Assembly: GCA_009782825.1 (NCBI GenBank) | Contig: WRII01000005.1 | Span: forward strand, 1 to 64,000 | Origin: Peptococcaceae bacterium | GTDB lineage: Bacteria > Bacillota > Desulfitobacteriia > Desulfitobacteriales > Syntrophobotulaceae | DNA: 64,000 nt | Direction of reading: 5' to 3' | In this document: positions 18,309-45,968 of the stretch, piece after piece | Layout: every line of letters begins with the position of its first letter | Numbering within the stretch: the first letter of the stretch is position 1 | Made by a program: the position numbers and the translations under genes | Notes under the pieces: generated by a model | Told to the model about the DNA's origin: nothing | The model's database searches: none | What the model saw: only the letters and a program-made list of their open reading frames with translations

Positions 18309-19157
18309 ATGAAGCTTGGAAAATTAAGTCGGCGTTGGTGTGTCTTTGGCGCTGTTATTCTCTTACTGGCCATAGCGTTTGTTGCATTCAGGCAAACGCC
18401 GCATTATTATCCGGCACGCAGTTATGTTGTTCTCAAGGCGCTCAATATTTTTGATGCGGTGAGCGAGATCTGGAGAGAAGACAAGATATGCGTACGTCTC
18501 CCGGATGGACGGTCAACACCTAAAACAGACTGGTCACCCCAAGTCTCTGTGTTTCGGCCGGGAGAGGTCTTTGCCACGTCTATAGGACGCGAAGCTGAGC
18601 TGACCATACTCTATAATTTTGGCGCTTTCGGGGGGAACTCCTATTCGTCGGTGTTGGATCCAAGTTCGCCTTTGTATTCAGGGTTTTATGGAGCCTACAT
18701 TGCCAAAGACCCCCAGGGGCCTTTTGGCTTTACAGAGGATGGCACTGCCGATTTGCAGATGCTGGCCTTGATAACCGCTTTCGACTTTAGCGATCTTGTC
18801 TTGTGGTCCTTGGGCTGCCGGAAAACTGTCACGGCCAAGGATTTTTTGAATGGGGACATCGCCATAGAAGAAAATGTGACATACGCCGGCTTGCTGGGGT
18901 GGAGCAAGATAGATTGTGTTTTTGAGGGCAGGGGGCTCTGGCACATGTATCAGAAAAACCAACCGGGCTATTTACAGTATGGCCTTCCTCCCGTGGGAAG
19001 CGGTGAGGATTTTGCTCCCACAACTCTTTATGGCCGGGTCTACGCGCGGTATCTGGACAATTACGGCGTTACCCTGTATCTTTATATTATGACGACTGAC
19101 CGGCAGGCTTTGGAGGACTGTGACACCCACATCCTGAGCCACGCTGAGATCTTATAA
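18309..19157 (+). CDS. hypothetical membrane-anchored protein
   Basis: A 282-residue protein with one N-terminal hydrophobic segment (residues ~10-28, after a basic MKLGKLSRR start), so it is probably anchored with its bulk outside. I recognise no domain. The rest contains many aromatic residues and a few cysteines. An AT-rich spacer with imperfect GAAGATCATCA repeats precedes it, and AACGAGGAAAGGG gives the ribosome site. A MITE follows 16 nt after the stop. Confidence 0.65.
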   Translation: MKLGKLSRRWCVFGAVILLLAIAFVAFRQTPHYYPARSYVVLKALNIFDAVSEIWREDKICVRLPDGRSTPKTDWSPQVSVFRPGEVFATSIGREAELTILYNFGAFGGNSYSSVLDPSSPLYSGFYGAYIAKDPQGPFGFTEDGTADLQMLALITAFDFSDLVLWSLGCRKTVTAKDFLNGDIAIEENVTYAGLLGWSKIDCVFEGRGLWHMYQKNQPGYLQYGLPPVGSGEDFAPTTLYGRVYARYLDNYGVTLYLYIMTTDRQALEDCDTHILSHAEIL

Positions 19158-19173
19158 GCTGTCATGGAATCAA

Positions 19174-19331
19174 GGGACTGTAACTAAATAACTTTGACAT
19201 TATTCCTTGTCTTTTTGCCGCCATGTTTCGTTGAAAATCCTTGAAAACCTTCCAGGTTGCCTGCGGATTTTCGCCTTGCCTGTCGACAAAAATCCGGCGG
19301 CCTAATGTCAAACTTATTTAGTTACAGCCCC
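19174..19331. mobile_element. MITE with 'GGGACTGTAACT' terminal inverted repeats, copy A
   Basis: The left end GGGACTGTAACTAAATAACT runs into TTGACATTA. The right end is its near-exact reverse complement (TAATGTCAAACTTATTTAGT then TACAGCCCC), giving arms of about 29 bp with two mismatches. The element is about 158 bp long and has no ORF. The inside is shared with copy B at 37907-38213. Solitary or short versions of the ends occur at 46147-46197 and 54915-54940. It lies 37 bp upstream of an AraC gene. Confidence 0.88.
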
Positions 19332-20331: not shown

Positions 20332-20724
20332 ATGTACACAAATATGACAACCAATCTGATGGTTGAGGATGTGAAAAAATCACTTGGTTTTTATGAGGGT
20401 ATGTTAGGTTTTTCTGTAACAGCGACTGTGCCAAATGAAAGTGACGGATTTCAGTTCGCAATTCTTGTCAAGGACAATATCCATCTCATGCTTCAAGAGC
20501 GGACAAACCTAATTTCGGAACTGCCGTCTTATGACACGCCGAGAGTCCAACCCTCAGCGACTCTTTATGTTATGGTAGACAACTTCGGTGTACTTTATGA
20601 AGAACTCAAGGCCAAAACTGAGCTTCTCTGTGAACTGCATGAAACTTTCTATGGCGTGAAGGAATTTGCTGTGGCAGATTGCGACGGATATGCCGTTGTG
20701 TTTACCGAACATAAGGAAATTTAA
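20332..20724 (+). CDS. VOC-superfamily (glyoxalase/bleomycin-resistance-like) protein
   Basis: A 130-residue protein with the paired beta-alpha-beta-beta-beta units of the vicinal-oxygen-chelate fold. It starts with TNLMVEDVKKSLGFYEGMLGF and ends with VKEFAVADCDGYAVVFTEH. GAAAGGGG precedes the ATG. It may be an enzyme or a drug-binding resistance protein; the sequence does not decide. Its 3' end abuts the truncated helicase gene, so this is a rearrangement border. Confidence 0.87.
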   Translation: MYTNMTTNLMVEDVKKSLGFYEGMLGFSVTATVPNESDGFQFAILVKDNIHLMLQERTNLISELPSYDTPRVQPSATLYVMVDNFGVLYEELKAKTELLCELHETFYGVKEFAVADCDGYAVVFTEHKEI

Positions 20725-20745: not shown

Positions 20746-21600
20746 CTACAATAGCACGACTGGATTGAAATGTTTGGAATACCTTTCCACATCGTTGCTC
20801 TCAATGATGAATACACCGTCATGCCCAGTGATCTCTGTCATGCTTGTTGTGATATTCTTCGTGTTTGGGTACACCGCATTGGCGAAGGTACAGATGTTCC
20901 TATTGAATCTGCGGCTGACCATGTTTTCCTCAATGGTTGCAACACCGTTTTTTTGTTTGTCGGCGCAGAACTCCCAAAGATTCCGTCCTGCCTTTCCTTT
21001 GTTCTTCTGTGAATTATGGGTACTATATGTCGCCTGTTTATTGTCTCCAACGCAAATGACATCAATCCCTAAATCGAATAGCATGTCAACAATGCTCAAA
21101 TCGTGTCCTGCCATGTCCTGCATTTCGTCAATGTAGATATGCGAGTACACTTTTTCCAATCGACTTATCACAGACCCGAGGCTCTGTTTATTGAGATACA
21201 CAGCGAGTTCACTGGCATTGTCTTTCTTCACCAGCCGTTGGCAGCCGCTAAAATATCGCTTCGCTTCACCCTCCTTGCCATAGTTGACTTGTCCATAACG
21301 GTCGGCGAAATCAAAAGCCTTTATCTGTTTGATTCCAATGATGTACGACTGATAGGGTCTAATAAGTTCTGCCAAAAGAAACTGATACCATGAACGCACG
21401 GTTATTCGCTGGCTGGGTACTCCGAGATTTTGCTTTGCGAGTTCGCCGTTGACGGTGTCAACTCCTTTATTCGTGTATGTTGTTATTAGAATACGCTTGC
21501 CGTTTACCGCGTCATTTGCATTTGACAACGCCTCATTGCAAATGCTCCATGTTTTACCGGAGCCAGCGGCACACATCTTAATCGTATTGTTCGATGACAT
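20746..21600 (-). pseudogene. truncated UvrD-like helicase, GajB-type (Gabija-like system)
   Basis: The 284-residue open frame keeps the N-terminal helicase motifs: MCAAGSGKT (Walker A, residues ~9-17), LITTYTNKGVDTVNGEL (motif Ia), IYIDEMQDMAG (Walker B) and VCVGDNKQATY. It then stops shortly after NTKNITTSMTEITG, whereas GajB/UvrD-like proteins continue for another ~200 residues with motifs IV-VI. The start overlaps the OLD-nuclease TOPRIM end by 23 nt, the gajA-gajB arrangement of Gabija. The C-terminus was lost at the junction with the VOC gene, so the protein is very unlikely to be an active helicase. Confidence 0.75.
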
Positions 21601-22625
21601 TCTTCAAATACCCTGGATACTGGATTTTTTCGAGGCTATCGAATACTCGCATAGCCCATTCAACTTTGTTGTTTACCATATAGGCTTTTGCCTCATTAGC
21701 AGTCTTGCCAGACATAGAACCGTTCTTAGAGATTGCTTTCAAGAATGCCTCTGTTGGAGTGCCGCTCTCTAAATTGACGGCTACTACGCTTGGCTCTATC
21801 GTATTCAAGCTTTCATCGGATTCGTAAAAGAAACTGCAATAATCGCTATCGACATACCCGTTATATTTCTGTGTAATGTGTTTGTCGATGTCCCCGTCAT
21901 TGTCTGTGACAATCGAAACCGGCTTCTTCATCAGGATGGCGATGTCGCAGTATCTCTTGAATGCAAGCGAATTGACAGTGATAATATCTATACCATCAGT
22001 TATGGGTAGCTTGTCGTTTTTATCGAAATAAGCCCTTCAGTTTAGCCATGCTTGTGAAAGATAAATTGTTTTCAGGTTCCTCCATCAAAAGCATGTTCAC
22101 TTCCTCTGCGGAGTGCTTGATTGCTAGTTCGATTTTTATTGTGTTCTGTGTGCCGAATCCAATATTCTCAAATGGTGTAGCGTCAACGATGACTGACATC
22201 TGGCGTTTCCATTCATCGACTTCTTCTTCTTTCAAGTCGATGGTCAGTGAGCGGTCGCCAATATGTACGTTTTCCTTCACGTTTTCATTGGGCTTTTCGA
22301 CAAGCTCGTTGGTATGAAAATCATTGCGGCTTTTTCGATAGGCCGTACTTAGATCAATCTGCTCTTGCTCTGATAAATAGGCAGTGATGTTCTCGGAGAC
22401 AAAGCGGTCAACCATGCGGGAATAGTCTTTGCGCGTTGTGTCAATGAAGGCAGCCTTTATTGGGCAGAACCGGAAATGGATTTGTTCACCGACGAAATAC
22501 CGATAACGCACAATGTAGAATGTAGAATTCGACCGGGATGTCGAAAACCTCATTTTTCTCCCACATCCGCTTATAAGTTGGCTCATACTCCGTGTTGAAC
22601 TCAACATCAATCCTGATACTCAATC
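21578..22625 (-). pseudogene. broken OLD-family ATP-dependent nuclease, GajA-type
   Basis: Pieces of one gene in several frames. The segment near 22625-22530 encodes DVEFNTEYEPTYKRMWEK. A 7-bp duplication (TTCTACATTCTACA, about 22521-22534) then shifts the frame into the ATPase part, which has LLMEEPENNLSFTSMAKL. An internal deletion near 22015-22025 joins this to AYFDKNDKLPITDGIDIITV and the TOPRIM end MKKPVSIVTDNDGD. About 70-80 residues, including the H-loop and the first TOPRIM acidic motif, are missing, and so is the N-terminal P-loop. The gene order with the helicase fits Gabija or a class 2 OLD system. It cannot be functional. Confidence 0.75.
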
Positions 22626-22719
22626 ACTATGCGTTCAATAATCAAGTCTTTGCCCTCCGTCTGGGTTTTGTATTCGCCGGATTATCGTTGTATTGGTTGT
22701 ATTGTTTGAGCAGAGCCAT

Positions 22720-23147
22720 CTATACTCCATAAACGTCCCGACAGGCTCTTTCGTAGTCTTCTTTTTTGTCTAATCTATGGACAAACTCGCGAATCTTGCT
22801 GCGCCGCACTTGAAGCGTACTCCTCGATGGTGGAATATACTGTGCAACGTCTGAACCATCAATGGTGTTGATGAGGCTATTTATGAGTGAGCGGGTCTTT
22901 TCGATGACCAATATGTGCCCCTCATTGTCGGCATTGAAAGATGGCGTAACCTCGTATGGGAGCTTGTGGATATGCCGTTTGCCCATCGCGCCTTCGGGCT
23001 GGAAGTCGGCGATGATTTCGCCAAGTGCGCGGCTGTTGAGTAGGCCACAAATATAAAGAGCTTCATCCTCTTCCAAAGCCTTTTTTTCACGTATTTAAGC
23101 CATTTTCGAGGGATAAAACTGCCGTATTCTGGGATTGTTCTATTAAA
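22720..23147 (-). pseudogene. C-terminal remnant of an N6-adenine DNA methylase / type II R-M protein
   Basis: The 3' end of a larger gene. The frame from about 23147 encodes PEYGSFIPRKWLKYVKK, then a run of seven A (23091-23097, minus strand) puts the rest out of frame; eight A would join it to ALEEDEALYICGLLNSRALG and MGKRHIHKLPYEVTP. Ends with a LNS...GKRHIHKLP arrangement occur in Eco57I/BREX-type methylases and similar specificity domains. The methyltransferase core (NPPY) is absent. It lies immediately upstream of the broken Gabija-like genes and is part of the same decayed defence cluster. Confidence 0.55.
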
Positions 23148-23243: not shown

Positions 23244-23603
23244 TTATTGAGTAGTTCTTTGCTCTCGAATGGTATATTCGACAGCCGACATTTTATGTTC
23301 TAACGTCTCAACACGGCTTTCCAAACCTATAGCTAAATCCAATTTATGGTTGAGTATTGCATGCCCGTCCATTGTTACTTTTATGGCTTTATCCATGTCA
23401 TGTTCTACTTTGAATTCAAGCTTTCTTAATCGTTTGCTAACCTCTTCCAGATCAGCTTTTGTGGCCATCTCTGCTCTTACGGCGGCCAGATCGTCTCTCA
23501 CTGCGGCTAGCTTGGAATCAAAAACCTCTTCTGTCCGGGCTAGTCGTGTTTCTACCACGTCCACCAGCACTAATTTCAATTCTTGCATTTCTTCTTTTGT
23601 CAT
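23244..23603 (-). CDS. hypothetical coiled-coil protein
   Basis: A 119-residue, highly charged protein dominated by heptad-like helices (for example DSKLAAVRDDLAAVRAEMAT and LRKLEFKVEHDMDKAI). It has no membrane segment and no recognised catalytic motif. ATG 23603 has GAGGTG 6 nt upstream; a GTG three codons earlier is less likely. Similar small coiled-coil proteins are frequent beside mobile DNA in Firmicutes, but I cannot assign a role. Confidence 0.65.
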   Translation of the reverse strand: MTKEEMQELKLVLVDVVETRLARTEEVFDSKLAAVRDDLAAVRAEMATKADLEEVSKRLRKLEFKVEHDMDKAIKVTMDGHAILNHKLDLAIGLESRVETLEHKMSAVEYTIREQRTTQ

Positions 23604-23655
23604 GTCGTTCACCTCGGGTATTATTGTAGCATGAATGCAGGTAGTCTGTCATCTC

Positions 23656-26048: not shown

Positions 26049-26459
26049 ACCAAGAAAGAGAGTATGCTCAAAATTGAAACGGACAAACATCATACCAACC
26101 ATGTGCAAGCTTTTCGACGCGTACACAAGTGTTAAGGCTTTGGCGCTTTGCTATCAAGTCATCAGGTCGTTTCCCATCCCTGGTATAGACCAGCGATCTG
26201 GGAGATGTCTCATCTCCGCGAAAAACAATACAATCAGGAAACTCAAGGTAAATCAGAATAGAATCACTACGAAAATTTTTCGGGAACACCCCCCTGCAAA
26301 AACACATCATAAGGCGGCCGCAGCGGCCCATCGGCCGAAAACTCACTGGTTGCCCCCTGAATAAAAGTCCAGCTCTTGATTGATCGGCCATACTACAAGA
26401 CAGAGTAAAACCAGCGGGACAACAATAAGCAATACCTTTTTGGTTCTGCGGTTAAGCAT
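26049..26459 (-). pseudogene. chimeric, disrupted copy of the downstream hypothetical gene
   Basis: This is a second copy of the gene at 26813-27439. It keeps the N-terminal anchor (MLNRRTKKVLLIVVPLVLLC, from ATG 26459) and the C-terminal end (FPDCIVFRGDETSPRSLVYT). The middle ~320 bp are replaced by about 83 bp (26285-26367) nearly identical to 58883-58967, which lies inside the YnbB-like gene. The insert introduces a stop soon after the anchor. The C-terminal part stays open in another frame (26068-26391). Confidence 0.8.
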
Positions 26460-26495
26460 TGACTTCTCCTTACAGATTACATTTTCCTGATGTTA

Positions 26496-26825
26496 CTAAA
26501 TCTTCCCTGAAAAATTTTCTTCAAATTCCATCGTAGTAATAAACGGTTTGAGGTGAACGGAAGCGTTTAAGTCTTTCCAACGTTGCAAAATAAACCAGTT
26601 TCGAAATCCGGGAAATGTAGTTACCGCAAATCCTGTTATGCTGCCATATCCATCAGAAATAAAATCTCCTGGATCCAACCCGAAGTAATCATAATAAATA
26701 TTTCGCATTGTGCCACTATAGTCATTTCCGGTCTTTGAGTAAGAAAGAATTTCAATTTTATTCCTTTGTAAATTGATTTCTCTTGTGTTTTTAGCAGAGA
26801 GCATGCTCGAGATCAAAACGGACAA
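26496..26825 (-). CDS. hypothetical protein (partner X of a duplicated pair)
   Basis: A 109-residue protein I do not recognise. Its start overlaps the end of the upstream gene by 13 nt, so the two are probably co-translated. The last ~22 codons recur as a degenerate copy at 27478-27545, showing that the X-Y unit has been tandemly duplicated. The sequence is rich in Tyr, Phe and Gly with no hydrophobic anchor. It may be the second half of a two-gene system or a split gene. Confidence 0.5.
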   Translation of the reverse strand: MSVLISSMLSAKNTREINLQRNKIEILSYSKTGNDYSGTMRNIYYDYFGLDPGDFISDGYGSITGFAVTTFPGFRNWFILQRWKDLNASVHLKPFITTMEFEENFSGKI

Positions 26826-27439
26826 ACATCATACCAACCACGCGCTAGTTTTTCTACACGTACACAATTATTATATCTTTGGTACTTTGCTATCAAGCCA
26901 TCAGGTCGTTTCCCATCCCTGGTATAGACCAGCGATCTGGGAGATGTCTCATCTCCGGTAAAAACAATACAATCAGGAAACTCGATATAAATCTCAATAA
27001 AATCACTTCGAAAATTTTTCGGGAAAACTTTCTTGTAGTTTTTTATGGATTCCCAGCCTTCTGCTGAAACTTCATAATATTCAATTCTCCAATCTTTATC
27101 TAGCGAGTTCCATTTATAAACCCCCAATCCACTATCAGTGACCTTGAAAGAAATAGTTTTACCGTACGAACTCGATACCTCAGATAAATCAGGCTGACTG
27201 TCAACGAAACGGTTAATTTCCTGAACCAGTAGTGAAAGTTCTTTTTCATATGGTTTTAACGCCGTCACTTTATGAAAAGTGTTTTTCCATGATAAACTGG
27301 TTTTGCAGAAAAACCCCCACCAATTTTGAACATTGTAATCAAAGGGCGCAAGCTCTTGGTTGATCGGCCATATAATAAGACAGAGCAAAATCAGGGGCAC
27401 AATAATTCGCAACACCTTTTTAGTTTTGCGGTTCAGCAT
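26813..27439 (-). CDS. hypothetical membrane-anchored protein (intact copy Y)
   Basis: A 208-residue protein with an N-terminal hydrophobic anchor (IIVPLILLCLIIWP, residues ~12-25) and a soluble exterior domain containing CIVFTGDETSPRSLVYTRDG and a closing RVEKLARGWYDVCPF. The family is unknown. GGAGAAATC precedes the ATG. A disrupted paralogue lies about 400 bp downstream at 26049-26459. It is likely secreted or anchored at the cell surface. Confidence 0.65.
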   Translation of the reverse strand: MLNRKTKKVLRIIVPLILLCLIIWPINQELAPFDYNVQNWWGFFCKTSLSWKNTFHKVTALKPYEKELSLLVQEINRFVDSQPDLSEVSSSYGKTISFKVTDSGLGVYKWNSLDKDWRIEYYEVSAEGWESIKNYKKVFPKNFRSDFIEIYIEFPDCIVFTGDETSPRSLVYTRDGKRPDGLIAKYQRYNNCVRVEKLARGWYDVCPF

Positions 27440-27477
27440 TGATTTCTCCTTACAGATTACGTTTTCCTGATGTCACT

Positions 27478-27545
27478 CAATCGTCCCTGAAAAGGTTTCT
27501 TCAAATTCCATCGTAGTAACAAACGGTTTGGGATGAACGTTTGAC
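27478..27545 (-). pseudogene. 3' remnant of a second copy of gene X
   Basis: About 60 bp match the 3' end of the gene at 26496-26825 (TTCTTCAAATTCCATCGTAG and flanks) with a few differences. It sits just upstream of copy Y, as gene X sits upstream of the disrupted Y copy. It is the footprint of a tandem duplication of the X-Y pair. Confidence 0.65.
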
Positions 27546-27699: not shown

Positions 27700-30225
27700 C
27701 TAAAAAGTCTCTATGCGATCAGCCTTATTCTTAATATTTGTTATAATTTCATATCCAATCGTATCACACAACTCCGCCATACGCTCAATAGTCATATTGA
27801 CATTATCGAATATAGCCACCTCATTGCCGACCTCTACCTCAGGAGTGATATCGGTAACATCAACCATCGTATAGTCCATGGTCACATTACCGATAATGGG
27901 GGCTAACTGCCCCTTAATCACGAAAGCTCCGGCATTTGACAACTTACGCATCAGCCCATCGGAATACCCTACAGGAACTTCAGCAATCCGCGTCATGCGC
28001 TTTGTGACAAAATGACGCCCGTAACTTATGCTGACGCCTTTGCCCAACTCCTTAACCTGTGTGACTTGTGTGACATATTTTAACGCCGGCTTCAACTCCA
28101 CCTTATCTTTTATTTCCTCACACGGATAATACCCTCTCAGCATATATCCCGGACGCACCATATTGAAATGTTCCGCCTTGGGATTGAAAATGGCGGCGCC
28201 GGCACAAGCGTGTTTGTAGCGGATCTTTCCGGTTATGTTTTCTACGATCCCTATTGCCTTTCTGAATCTTTCCGTCTGCATCGCTGTGTAGGCTAAATCC
28301 TCAGGATCGTACATATCTGCGCTTGAATAATGTGTATAGATCCCTTCCACTCTTAAGTTTCTGCACTCTGACAAGGCCTTGGCGAACTCATAGCAATTCT
28401 CCACTAGAACGCCAAGCCGGCTCATCCCTGTGTCTACCTCAATATGAACGCCTAATTTTTTGTCGGCTTTTATGGCGGCTTCGTTCAGGCTCTGAACAAA
28501 GTCCGCATCACAGACAGATGTGACAACATAGTCACGCTCCGCAATCCACTCTGTCTCTTCAGCAAAGGGCTGATACAGAACAAGAAATTTTGCATGGGGC
28601 ATGAGGGTATGAAGGTCTTCCGCTTCCTGTAAATCCGCAATGGCAAAGAAGCTGCAGTCATTATAAATATTTGTAAGTAAATCTGCGCCGCTCCCGTAAG
28701 CATCTGCTTTGATAACCGGCATCACCTGAACACGGCTTCCCACATAATGTTTTATGGCGGCATAGTTATGTTTGAGGGCATCCACATCCACGAGAAGCCG
28801 TGTTTGTGCGGGTATGATACTCCCTCGTTCCAGAAGCTTATAGATGAATTCGTACTGCTCCCACATGTTCATATCTTTTGAGCCTTTTATGAGAATCATA
28901 TCTCCGGAACCCATTTCGCTGTTGCGGAGAATCGAGGTAAGAACGGTATTCAACTCTTCTTTTGTCGAAAAACAACACGCATCTGGTCTTCCCTCAAGAA
29001 AAGCCTCACGGTTATTCCCAATATAATAAACTTTGTCTGCTTTACCGGCTGTATAAAGGGCAATTTCACGATGGAGCTCCGCGCTTCTTTCCCCCAGCTC
29101 CAAAAGCTCCCCGAGAATAGCGATCTTCTTCCCGTCATTTTTTAATTCCGCAAGGGTGTCCAGAGCCGCTTTTGTTGAATCCGGGCTGGCGTTATAATAA
29201 TCTTTTATAAACTTTATGCCATGGACAGTGGCAGCCTCCAAACGCATAGAGCTGCGCGGGTAAATACGCAACGCTTCTATTGCCAATTTGAGCGGAACAC
29301 CCAATTGAACACCCGTTGTCAAGGCTAACAGCGCATTTTGAACATTATGCCGCCCCAGAACAGGTAGAGAACACCTATATGTGTTCTCTTGATCATGGAC
29401 CAAGAACGTCAAGCCATATCTGTTCTTATCCCAATACTGACAGATATCCGTCGCATAAAGAAGATTGTGGCTCTCCGGGCTTAGTCCGCAAAAGAGCACA
29501 TCGTGCTTATCAGATTGAACTTTGGCCAGCCTATCATCATCACTGCATAAAACAAGAGTCCCGTTTTCCTTAAGGCCCTCAACGATTTCCATTTTGGCGT
29601 TAAAAACATCCGCGTGTGTCCCGCCTAAATTTCCAATATGGGCGATGCCTATTTTTGTAATAATGGCGATGTCAGGTTTCACGATATTCGTGAGTGTGCG
29701 AATTTCGCCCATGTGATTCATTCCCATTTCGACAACAGCCATATCGTAGTTATGATCCAGTTTGAGAAGTGTTTGCGGAACACCCAATTCATTATTGAGG
29801 TTCTTTTCGGTAGCCAGCACCTTGTATTTGGCGGATAATACAGAGGTCAGCATATCTTTGACTGTGGTTTTTCCGTTACTGCCGGTTATGGCGATTATCG
29901 GCTTAGCAAATTTACTGCGGTAATATGAGGCAATATCTTGGAAGGCTTTCTTGGTGTCGCTGACTTTGAGTGTTGGGATAGGGGTGTCTACCTCCTCGGA
30001 CACGATGGCCATGCGCGCCCCTTTTTGAGCGGCAATGGAAACATACCTGTGTCCATTATCCTTATCCGTCACAAGAGCCACAAAAGCCGCGTCTTTCACA
30101 GTATCACGTGAATCGAATTTGACAGCAGACAACGAAAAATCATCACCGTGATAAGGTGTTGTTCCCTGTGTGCAAGCGGTTATTTCTTTGAAAGTTAATT
30201 GATCCAAGACAGACCCCTCCAGCAA
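27700..30225 (-). CDS. murF-alr: bifunctional MurF - alanine racemase fusion
   Basis: Two enzymes in one 841-residue chain. Residues 1-~460 are UDP-MurNAc-tripeptide:D-Ala-D-Ala ligase: P-loop ITGSNGKTT (113-121), EKNLNNELGVP and VEMGMNHMGEI. Residues ~475-841 are a PLP alanine racemase: VDVDALKHNYAAI, the PLP-lysine segment VMPVIKADAYGSGA (Lys506) and SYGRHF...EVPVGYSDG with the catalytic Tyr. The fusion couples D-alanine supply to the last cytoplasmic step of stem-peptide assembly. It is well known in Bacteroidetes; in a Firmicute context, where alr usually stands alone next to ndoAI, it is notable. The ddl gene is at 57617. Confidence 0.96.
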   Translation of the reverse strand: MLEGSVLDQLTFKEITACTQGTTPYHGDDFSLSAVKFDSRDTVKDAAFVALVTDKDNGHRYVSIAAQKGARMAIVSEEVDTPIPTLKVSDTKKAFQDIASYYRSKFAKPIIAITGSNGKTTVKDMLTSVLSAKYKVLATEKNLNNELGVPQTLLKLDHNYDMAVVEMGMNHMGEIRTLTNIVKPDIAIITKIGIAHIGNLGGTHADVFNAKMEIVEGLKENGTLVLCSDDDRLAKVQSDKHDVLFCGLSPESHNLLYATDICQYWDKNRYGLTFLVHDQENTYRCSLPVLGRHNVQNALLALTTGVQLGVPLKLAIEALRIYPRSSMRLEAATVHGIKFIKDYYNASPDSTKAALDTLAELKNDGKKIAILGELLELGERSAELHREIALYTAGKADKVYYIGNNREAFLEGRPDACCFSTKEELNTVLTSILRNSEMGSGDMILIKGSKDMNMWEQYEFIYKLLERGSIIPAQTRLLVDVDALKHNYAAIKHYVGSRVQVMPVIKADAYGSGADLLTNIYNDCSFFAIADLQEAEDLHTLMPHAKFLVLYQPFAEETEWIAERDYVVTSVCDADFVQSLNEAAIKADKKLGVHIEVDTGMSRLGVLVENCYEFAKALSECRNLRVEGIYTHYSSADMYDPEDLAYTAMQTERFRKAIGIVENITGKIRYKHACAGAAIFNPKAEHFNMVRPGYMLRGYYPCEEIKDKVELKPALKYVTQVTQVKELGKGVSISYGRHFVTKRMTRIAEVPVGYSDGLMRKLSNAGAFVIKGQLAPIIGNVTMDYTMVDVTDITPEVEVGNEVAIFDNVNMTIERMAELCDTIGYEIITNIKNKADRIETF

Positions 30226-44749: not shown

Positions 44750-45968
44750 TCAGTTCCACTCAGAAGCAAGCAGAAAGTCCCGGATGTTTTTGTGTTTGAT
44801 CCCTTCGCGGCTCATGTCGAACTCATCCAGTGACACAACATACTTCGGAAAATTGTCCCGTACCGGTTCGTATGCGCCGAACTCACGTTGAATCGTCTCT
44901 TCTGACGCAAGAAGGTAGGTAACCTGAACATAGAGCCTCTCCTTCTTATTCTCACAGATGAAGTCAATCTCCTTCGCTCCCGCTCTACCGACTGTAACTT
45001 TGTAACCCCTCCGAAGCAGCTCCATGAAAACGATGTTCTCCAGAATGAGATTCACGTCCTTCATGTTGCCTCCGTACACCGCCTCGCGGAGTCCGTGGTC
45101 GGCGATGTAATATTTCTCGTTGACCGCAAGCAGCTTCTTGCCCTGTAAATCCTGTCTGCGTACTTGGTAGATGAGAAAAGCGTTCATGCAATAATTGATA
45201 TAGTTCATCGTCGTTTCGGGAGCCATCACACGGTTTGCGTTCTTAAAATATTTTGAGATGGACGCCGCCGAAAACGTCGTCCCAACACCGTTGAATATAT
45301 ATGCTATGATACGCTCCAGCTGATCGACGTCACGAACCTTATTGCGTTTTACGATGTCTTTAAGGACAACCGAATTGAATAAATCCTGTAAGTAGATTTG
45401 TGACGGTGATTCTTCATAGCGGAGATTTCCGAGATAAGGCATACCGCCGAGGGTCATATACCTTGTGAACGCTTCCTTTTGCTGCACGTTCGGGAAGATA
45501 GAGATGTATAGCTCCAAGAACTCCCCGAAGGAAAAAGGATAAATAAATGATGAATTCAACATACCGCCCGGCAAGGTAAGTCGCAAGTTCGCCTGAAAGC
45601 AGCTTGGCGTTTGAACCTGTGATATAGATGTCACAGTCAAATTTAACACGGAGCGAATTGACGCATTTTTCCCATTCCAAAACCTCTTGAATTTCATCGA
45701 AGAAAAGATATGCCTTCCCTTCGATGCCCGCCATCCTCTGCGTGACCTCTTTGTGCAGAGCCTCAGCGGTGCGCAGCCAAGCGTTGTCCATGTCCTCAAA
45801 ATTGAGTTTGATAAACTGTGAGCCGGAAATCCCTTGCGTTGTTAACTCGGCCTGTATCAATTCCAGCATGACCGATTTCCCGCTACGTCTGACGCCGGTC
45901 AGCACTTTTATGAGATCGCTCCCGATAAACGGCCGGATGCGGCTCATGTACGCCTCTCTTTGAATCAT
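44750..45968 (-). pseudogene. frameshifted AAA ATPase with DUF4143 domain
   Basis: Two frames make one protein of about 400 residues. The N-terminal frame (from ATG 45968) has VLTGVRRSGKSVMLELIQAE (P-loop), FFDEIQEV (Walker B) and ITGSNAKLLSGELATYLAGR, then runs out of frame. The C-terminal frame continues from YPFSFGEFLELY through the DUF4143 domain (GAKEIDFICENKKERLYVQV). The break is a tandem TTTA duplication on the minus strand (TAAATAAA at 45540-45547, plus); removing one unit restores the frame. A phase-switch or a simple mutation are both possible. Confidence 0.85.

What the first reader, a model, noticed from the sequence alone, without database searches (positions are those of the whole stretch)
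20746..23147. Decayed Gabija-like defence island with an adjacent DNA-methylase tail
An OLD nuclease and UvrD-like helicase overlap head to tail as in Gabija, but the nuclease has a 7-bp duplication, an internal deletion spanning the H-loop/TOPRIM start and a missing N-terminus, and the helicase is cut at 284 residues. A methylase C-terminus follows. The tract documents loss of an anti-phage system.
Basis: partly seen in the sequence, partly recalled or inferred. Interest (0 to 1): 0.7.

Follow-up and report, generated by a model that had tools for sequence, protein, structure and literature searches.

The report
Broken remnant of a Gabija operon
A bacterial chromosome carries the wreck of a Gabija anti-phage gene pair: the nuclease gene has lost its ATP-binding start and part of its catalytic site, and the helicase gene has lost its last quarter, so this is an ordinary, probably recent, dead defence system.

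Summary
On the minus strand, 22617→20746, lie remnants of a two-gene Gabija operon of a compact branch (PADLOC GajA PDLC00102 and GajB PDLC00148). Intact relatives exist: a member of the same taxonomic family (546 + 368 aa) and a Planococcus plasmid (543 + 378 aa, closest). Family profiles built here find solved GajA and GajB as their best Protein Data Bank matches. Lesions, measured against intact relatives: GajA residues 1 to about 112 missing (Walker A); a perfect 7-bp tandem duplication at 22512-22525 shifting the frame; residues about 310-391 missing (H-loop and first TOPRIM glutamate), with a second frameshift; GajB ending at residue 284 of about 370, losing helicase motifs V and VI. No other copy and no missing piece was found in the genome. 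Upstream, not downstream, sits the last 116 residues of a type IIG-like methyltransferase. No in-frame stop interrupts 2.2 kb of retained coding sequence, so the inactivation is recent (at most about 3.6% neutral divergence). Two genus mates lack both genes, and no strain close enough to show the intact ancestor is held. Ordinary pseudogene; interest low. Side lead: all 12 intact compact GajB examined have no room for the 2B subdomain.

The parts
20746..21600 (-). gajB remnant: 284-aa open frame, N-terminal about three quarters of a compact GajB (Walker A to just before motif V), C-terminus with motifs V and VI absent
   Evidence: PDLC00148 6.2e-71; 44% to Planococcus GajB; alignment
21578..22036 (-). 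gajA remnant, C-terminal part: TOPRIM with DND motif, residues 392-543 of the Planococcus protein; ends in the stop that overlaps the gajB start by 23 nt
   Evidence: 53% to Planococcus GajA, E 1.3e-49; PDLC00102
22036..22038 (-). junction of the internal gajA deletion (about residues 310-391 absent) with a frameshift
   Evidence: tblastn and hmmsearch fragment ends
22038..22520 (-). gajA remnant, middle part: dimerisation region and signature/Walker B segment (LMEEPENNLS), residues 149-309
   Evidence: 44% to Planococcus GajA, E 2.7e-44; PDLC00102 7.5e-38
22512..22525 (-). 7-bp tandem duplication (AATGTAG x2 on the + strand) that shifts the gajA frame
   Evidence: direct read and frame change at this point
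22522..22617 (-). gajA remnant, residues about 113-150; everything upstream (Walker A half) is absent
   Evidence: hmmsearch 12.5 bits, i-E 1e-5; 44% to Planococcus
22720..23076 (-). C-terminal 116 residues of a type IIG-like restriction enzyme/N6-adenine methyltransferase (intact relative 1094 aa); start and catalytic part absent
   Evidence: 44% over 116 aa to Hymenobacter protein, 1e-22, itself PDLC03630 8.6e-48

Best explanation
This is a recently inactivated gajA-gajB (Gabija, class 2 OLD nuclease plus UvrD-like helicase) operon of the compact branch, next to the tail of a type IIG-like restriction-methylation enzyme. When intact, GajA would be an ABC-ATPase/TOPRIM nuclease assembled with GajB to cut invading DNA (inferred from characterised Gabija). 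Here it cannot work. GajA lacks its P-loop, H-loop and first TOPRIM glutamate and is split over three frames. GajB lacks motifs V and VI. Shown: homology, lesions, absence of other copies in this assembly. Inferred: loss of function, recency, and the order of events.
For: GajA and GajB models match at 7.5e-38/4e-22 and 6.2e-71. Intact homologous operons with the same gene order were found in a family member, a Planococcus plasmid and other plasmids and genomes. Protein Data Bank best hits are GajA and GajB. The segments that would hold the P-loop residues G35-K36, H326 and E382 (TOPRIM Glu), all invariant in 12 intact GajA, are absent. GajA E379 and D432/D434 are the active site in B. cereus (PMC10781630). 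No other full or partial copy was found in the genome, which is about 95% complete. Zero in-frame stops in 2226 nt of retained coding sequence, giving an upper bound of about 3.6% neutral substitutions.
Against: The gajB fragment and the C-terminal gajA fragment are still open frames and could be translated. A draft assembly error could mimic the 7-bp duplication, though hardly three separate deletions. No expression data.
Confidence: 0.93

Rival explanations
1. Assembly or sequencing artefact: the genome carries an intact operon that was misassembled.
For: Draft genome in 119 contigs, with several contigs ending in a multicopy repeat.
Against: The locus lies inside an 83-kb contig, far from its ends; the missing segments are found nowhere else in the assembly; several independent large deletions would have to be errors, while flanking genes are open.
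Confidence: 0.04
2. A fragment kept for a use of its own, for example the 284-aa GajB-like ATPase piece or the 117-aa TOPRIM piece expressed as a small regulator or decoy.
For: No in-frame stops in the retained pieces; gajB keeps its start and the 23-nt overlap.
Against: Motifs V and VI, present in all 12 intact relatives, are gone; recent inactivation explains the lack of stops as well; no second genome with the same fragment was found.
Confidence: 0.03
3. The remnant belongs to another OLD/ATPase plus helicase system (PARIS, Septu/PtuA, retron effector), not Gabija.
For: Intact relatives also match AriA and PtuA models more weakly.
Against: GajA and GajB models win by hundreds of bits in intact relatives, and solved GajA/GajB are the best Protein Data Bank hits.
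Confidence: 0.03

Closest known systems
Gabija, compact branch (PADLOC PDLC00102/PDLC00098 GajA with PDLC00148/PDLC00140 GajB), e.g. Planococcus lenghuensis plasmid NZ_CP019642
   Same: Gene order, 23-nt overlap, 44-53% protein identity over the retained segments
   Different: Window copy is missing the GajA N-terminus, about 82 internal residues and the GajB C-terminus, and is frameshifted
Canonical Gabija of Bacillus cereus VD045 (GajA 578 aa, GajB 494 aa; PDB 8SM3)
   Same: ABC ATPase plus TOPRIM nuclease followed by a UvrD-like helicase; found by family profiles as the best solved match
   Different: Compact GajB is 337-412 aa with only about 16-21 residues between motifs IV and V, hence no room for subdomain 2B
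Type IIG restriction enzyme-methyltransferase (PADLOC PDLC03630)
   Same: C-terminal 116 residues of the upstream remnant
   Different: Only about a tenth of the protein remains; the catalytic domain is absent

Membership tests
Gabija | GajA: class 2 OLD protein, N-terminal ABC ATPase plus C-terminal TOPRIM | tested here: inconclusive
   Homology of retained parts is clear (PDLC00102 7.5e-38 and 4e-22) and intact relatives have both domains (PF13175, PF20469); in the window the ATPase N-terminus and the first TOPRIM motif are absent, so it is a remnant of a member, not a working member
Gabija | GajB: UvrD-like SF1 helicase encoded next to GajA | tested here: met
   PDLC00148 6.2e-71; only Protein Data Bank hits are GajB; truncated after residue 283
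Gabija | Complete TOPRIM active site (invariant Glu and DxD) | tested here: not met
   DND present at about 21.9 kb; the invariant Glu lies in the deleted segment
Gabija | Anti-phage activity | not testable with these tools
   Requires expression; expected absent in the broken locus
Type IIG restriction-modification | N6-adenine methyltransferase catalytic domain fused to a nuclease | tested here: not met
   Only the C-terminal 116 residues remain

The most novel reading that the evidence does not exclude
The remnant belongs to a compact Gabija branch whose GajB lacks the 2B subdomain altogether; if such systems are active, 2B rotation, discussed as part of GajB activation, is dispensable. The broken window copy itself adds nothing functional.
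Probability: 0.5. Interest if true: 0.4.

Novelty: new member of a known kind. Interest (0 to 1): 0.15.

Why it matters
It is one more example of turnover of defence genes: a Gabija operon and a restriction-methylation gene in pieces side by side, probably inactivated recently. The intact relatives collected on the way point to a compact Gabija branch without the GajB 2B subdomain, for which no experimental test turned up in the limited paper searches made here.

Tried and rejected
Search of genome contigs with the GajB fragment gave only one distant locus, and viral contigs gave none. The methylase tail is absent from the 398 other genomes of the phylum that were sampled and from phages. Rfam found no RNA in the window. 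The roughly 95 nt between the methylase stop and the first GajA homology (22626-22719, an ATG right after the methylase stop with broken frames) matched nothing in the GajA profile and remains unassigned. An empty-site comparison failed: in genus mates G001 and G002 the gene at 18309-19157 is conserved, but the AraC, glyoxalase and Gabija genes do not follow it. A fixed methylase-Gabija association was rejected, because intact compact operons have varied neighbours.

Full report
What is there. Reading the minus strand from 22617 down to 20746 gives, in order, three pieces of a GajA-type OLD nuclease in three different frames, and a 284-codon open frame for the first three quarters of a GajB-type helicase. 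PADLOC models identify them: GajA PDLC00102 at 7.5e-38 and 4e-22 on the two larger pieces, GajB PDLC00148 at 6.2e-71. The genes overlap by 23 nt, as in the closest intact relative.

Intact relatives. A genome of the same taxonomic family (G018) has an intact pair of 546 and 368 aa in a defence-rich neighbourhood. A Planococcus lenghuensis plasmid carries the closest pair, 543 and 378 aa. Others lie on plasmids of Streptomyces, Enterobacter, Lactiplantibacillus, Bacillus methanolicus, Agrobacterium and Rhodococcus, and in four more genomes of the phylum. Twelve intact GajA and twelve intact GajB were aligned. A profile of the GajA set finds solved GajA first in the Protein Data Bank (1.3e-17), and one of the GajB set (which includes the window fragment) finds solved GajB first (6e-19). 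The window GajB alone hits only GajB entries there.

Lesions. Against these relatives: (1) GajA residues 1 to about 112, with the P-loop, are absent; (2) a perfect 7-bp tandem duplication at 22512-22525 shifts the frame; (3) residues about 310-391 are absent, joining 22038 to 22036 out of frame and removing the conserved H326 and the first TOPRIM glutamate E382 (numbers of the Planococcus protein), while the DND motif is kept; (4) GajB stops at residue 284, just after motif IV, so that the SKG (motif V) and TRA (motif VI) segments are lost. The break in gajB lies at about 20750, some 25 bases from the end of the convergent glyoxalase-family gene (20332-20724). The B. cereus active site consists of E379, D432 and D434 (PMC10781630), so the GajA remnant is not expected to cut DNA.

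Copies elsewhere. No other GajA or GajB and none of the missing pieces were found in the genome. A 47-residue hit on contig C37 (6.9e-5) covers only the ATPase start and lies in an intact 382-aa frame; this looks like an unrelated ABC-type ATPase, but was not examined further. The two genus mates have neither gene. Their neighbourhood differs beyond 19.2 kb, so no empty site or intact ancestor can be shown.

Age. In 2226 nt of retained coding sequence (gajA, gajB and methylase pieces together) there is no in-frame stop. With a transition weight of 2 about 83 stops are expected per substitution per site, so the 95% bound on neutral divergence since inactivation is about 3.6%. This assumes no selection on the fragments.

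Methylase tail. The frame 22720-23076 matches the last 116 residues of a 1094-aa Hymenobacter protein at 44%, which itself matches the type IIG restriction-methyltransferase model PDLC03630 at 8.6e-48. It lies upstream of gajA in the direction of transcription. Intact compact Gabija operons have varied neighbours, so it is best read as a separate restriction-modification remnant.

Side lead. In all twelve intact compact GajB only about 16-21 residues separate the motif IV leucine from the motif V KG, which leaves no room for the 2B subdomain described for B. cereus GajB, whose rotation was discussed as part of activation (PMC10781630). GajB helicase activity is itself disputed (PMC10681800). 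A paper search for GajB with '2B domain' returned only two structural papers. The missing 2B is an inference from sequence; no structure was predicted.

Verdict. The locus is an ordinary, recently broken Gabija operon; interest is low.

Noticed in passing
window 19174-19331: A 158-bp element with 29-nt terminal inverted repeats has many near-identical whole or partial copies in the genome, several at contig ends. Some copies carry one or two extra modules of about 72-74 nt at fixed positions, and the two modules look like inverted relatives of each other (MITE or BOX-like modular element).
   Followed up: partly
L041 3435-5014 (Xanthomonas hortorum plasmid CP104904): GajA of another compact Gabija operon is annotated as two consecutive ORFs (828 and 750 nt), possibly a second broken copy.
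   Followed up: no
window 26057-27539: Duplicated segments around a 208-aa ORF: 26057-26289 and 26796-27028 are 88% identical, 26371-26559 and 27351-27539 87%; one copy seems incomplete.
   Followed up: no
window 23244-23612: A 122-aa coiled-coil-like ORF lies in sequence with further copies on contigs C3, C4, C33 and C54.
   Followed up: no
window 44750-45911: An ATPase gene that resembles the DUF4143 type (by eye) appears split into two frames near 45.8 kb.
   Followed up: no
window 27700-30225: MurF and alanine racemase look fused in one 841-aa frame; genus mates have only distant, separate matches.
   Followed up: no
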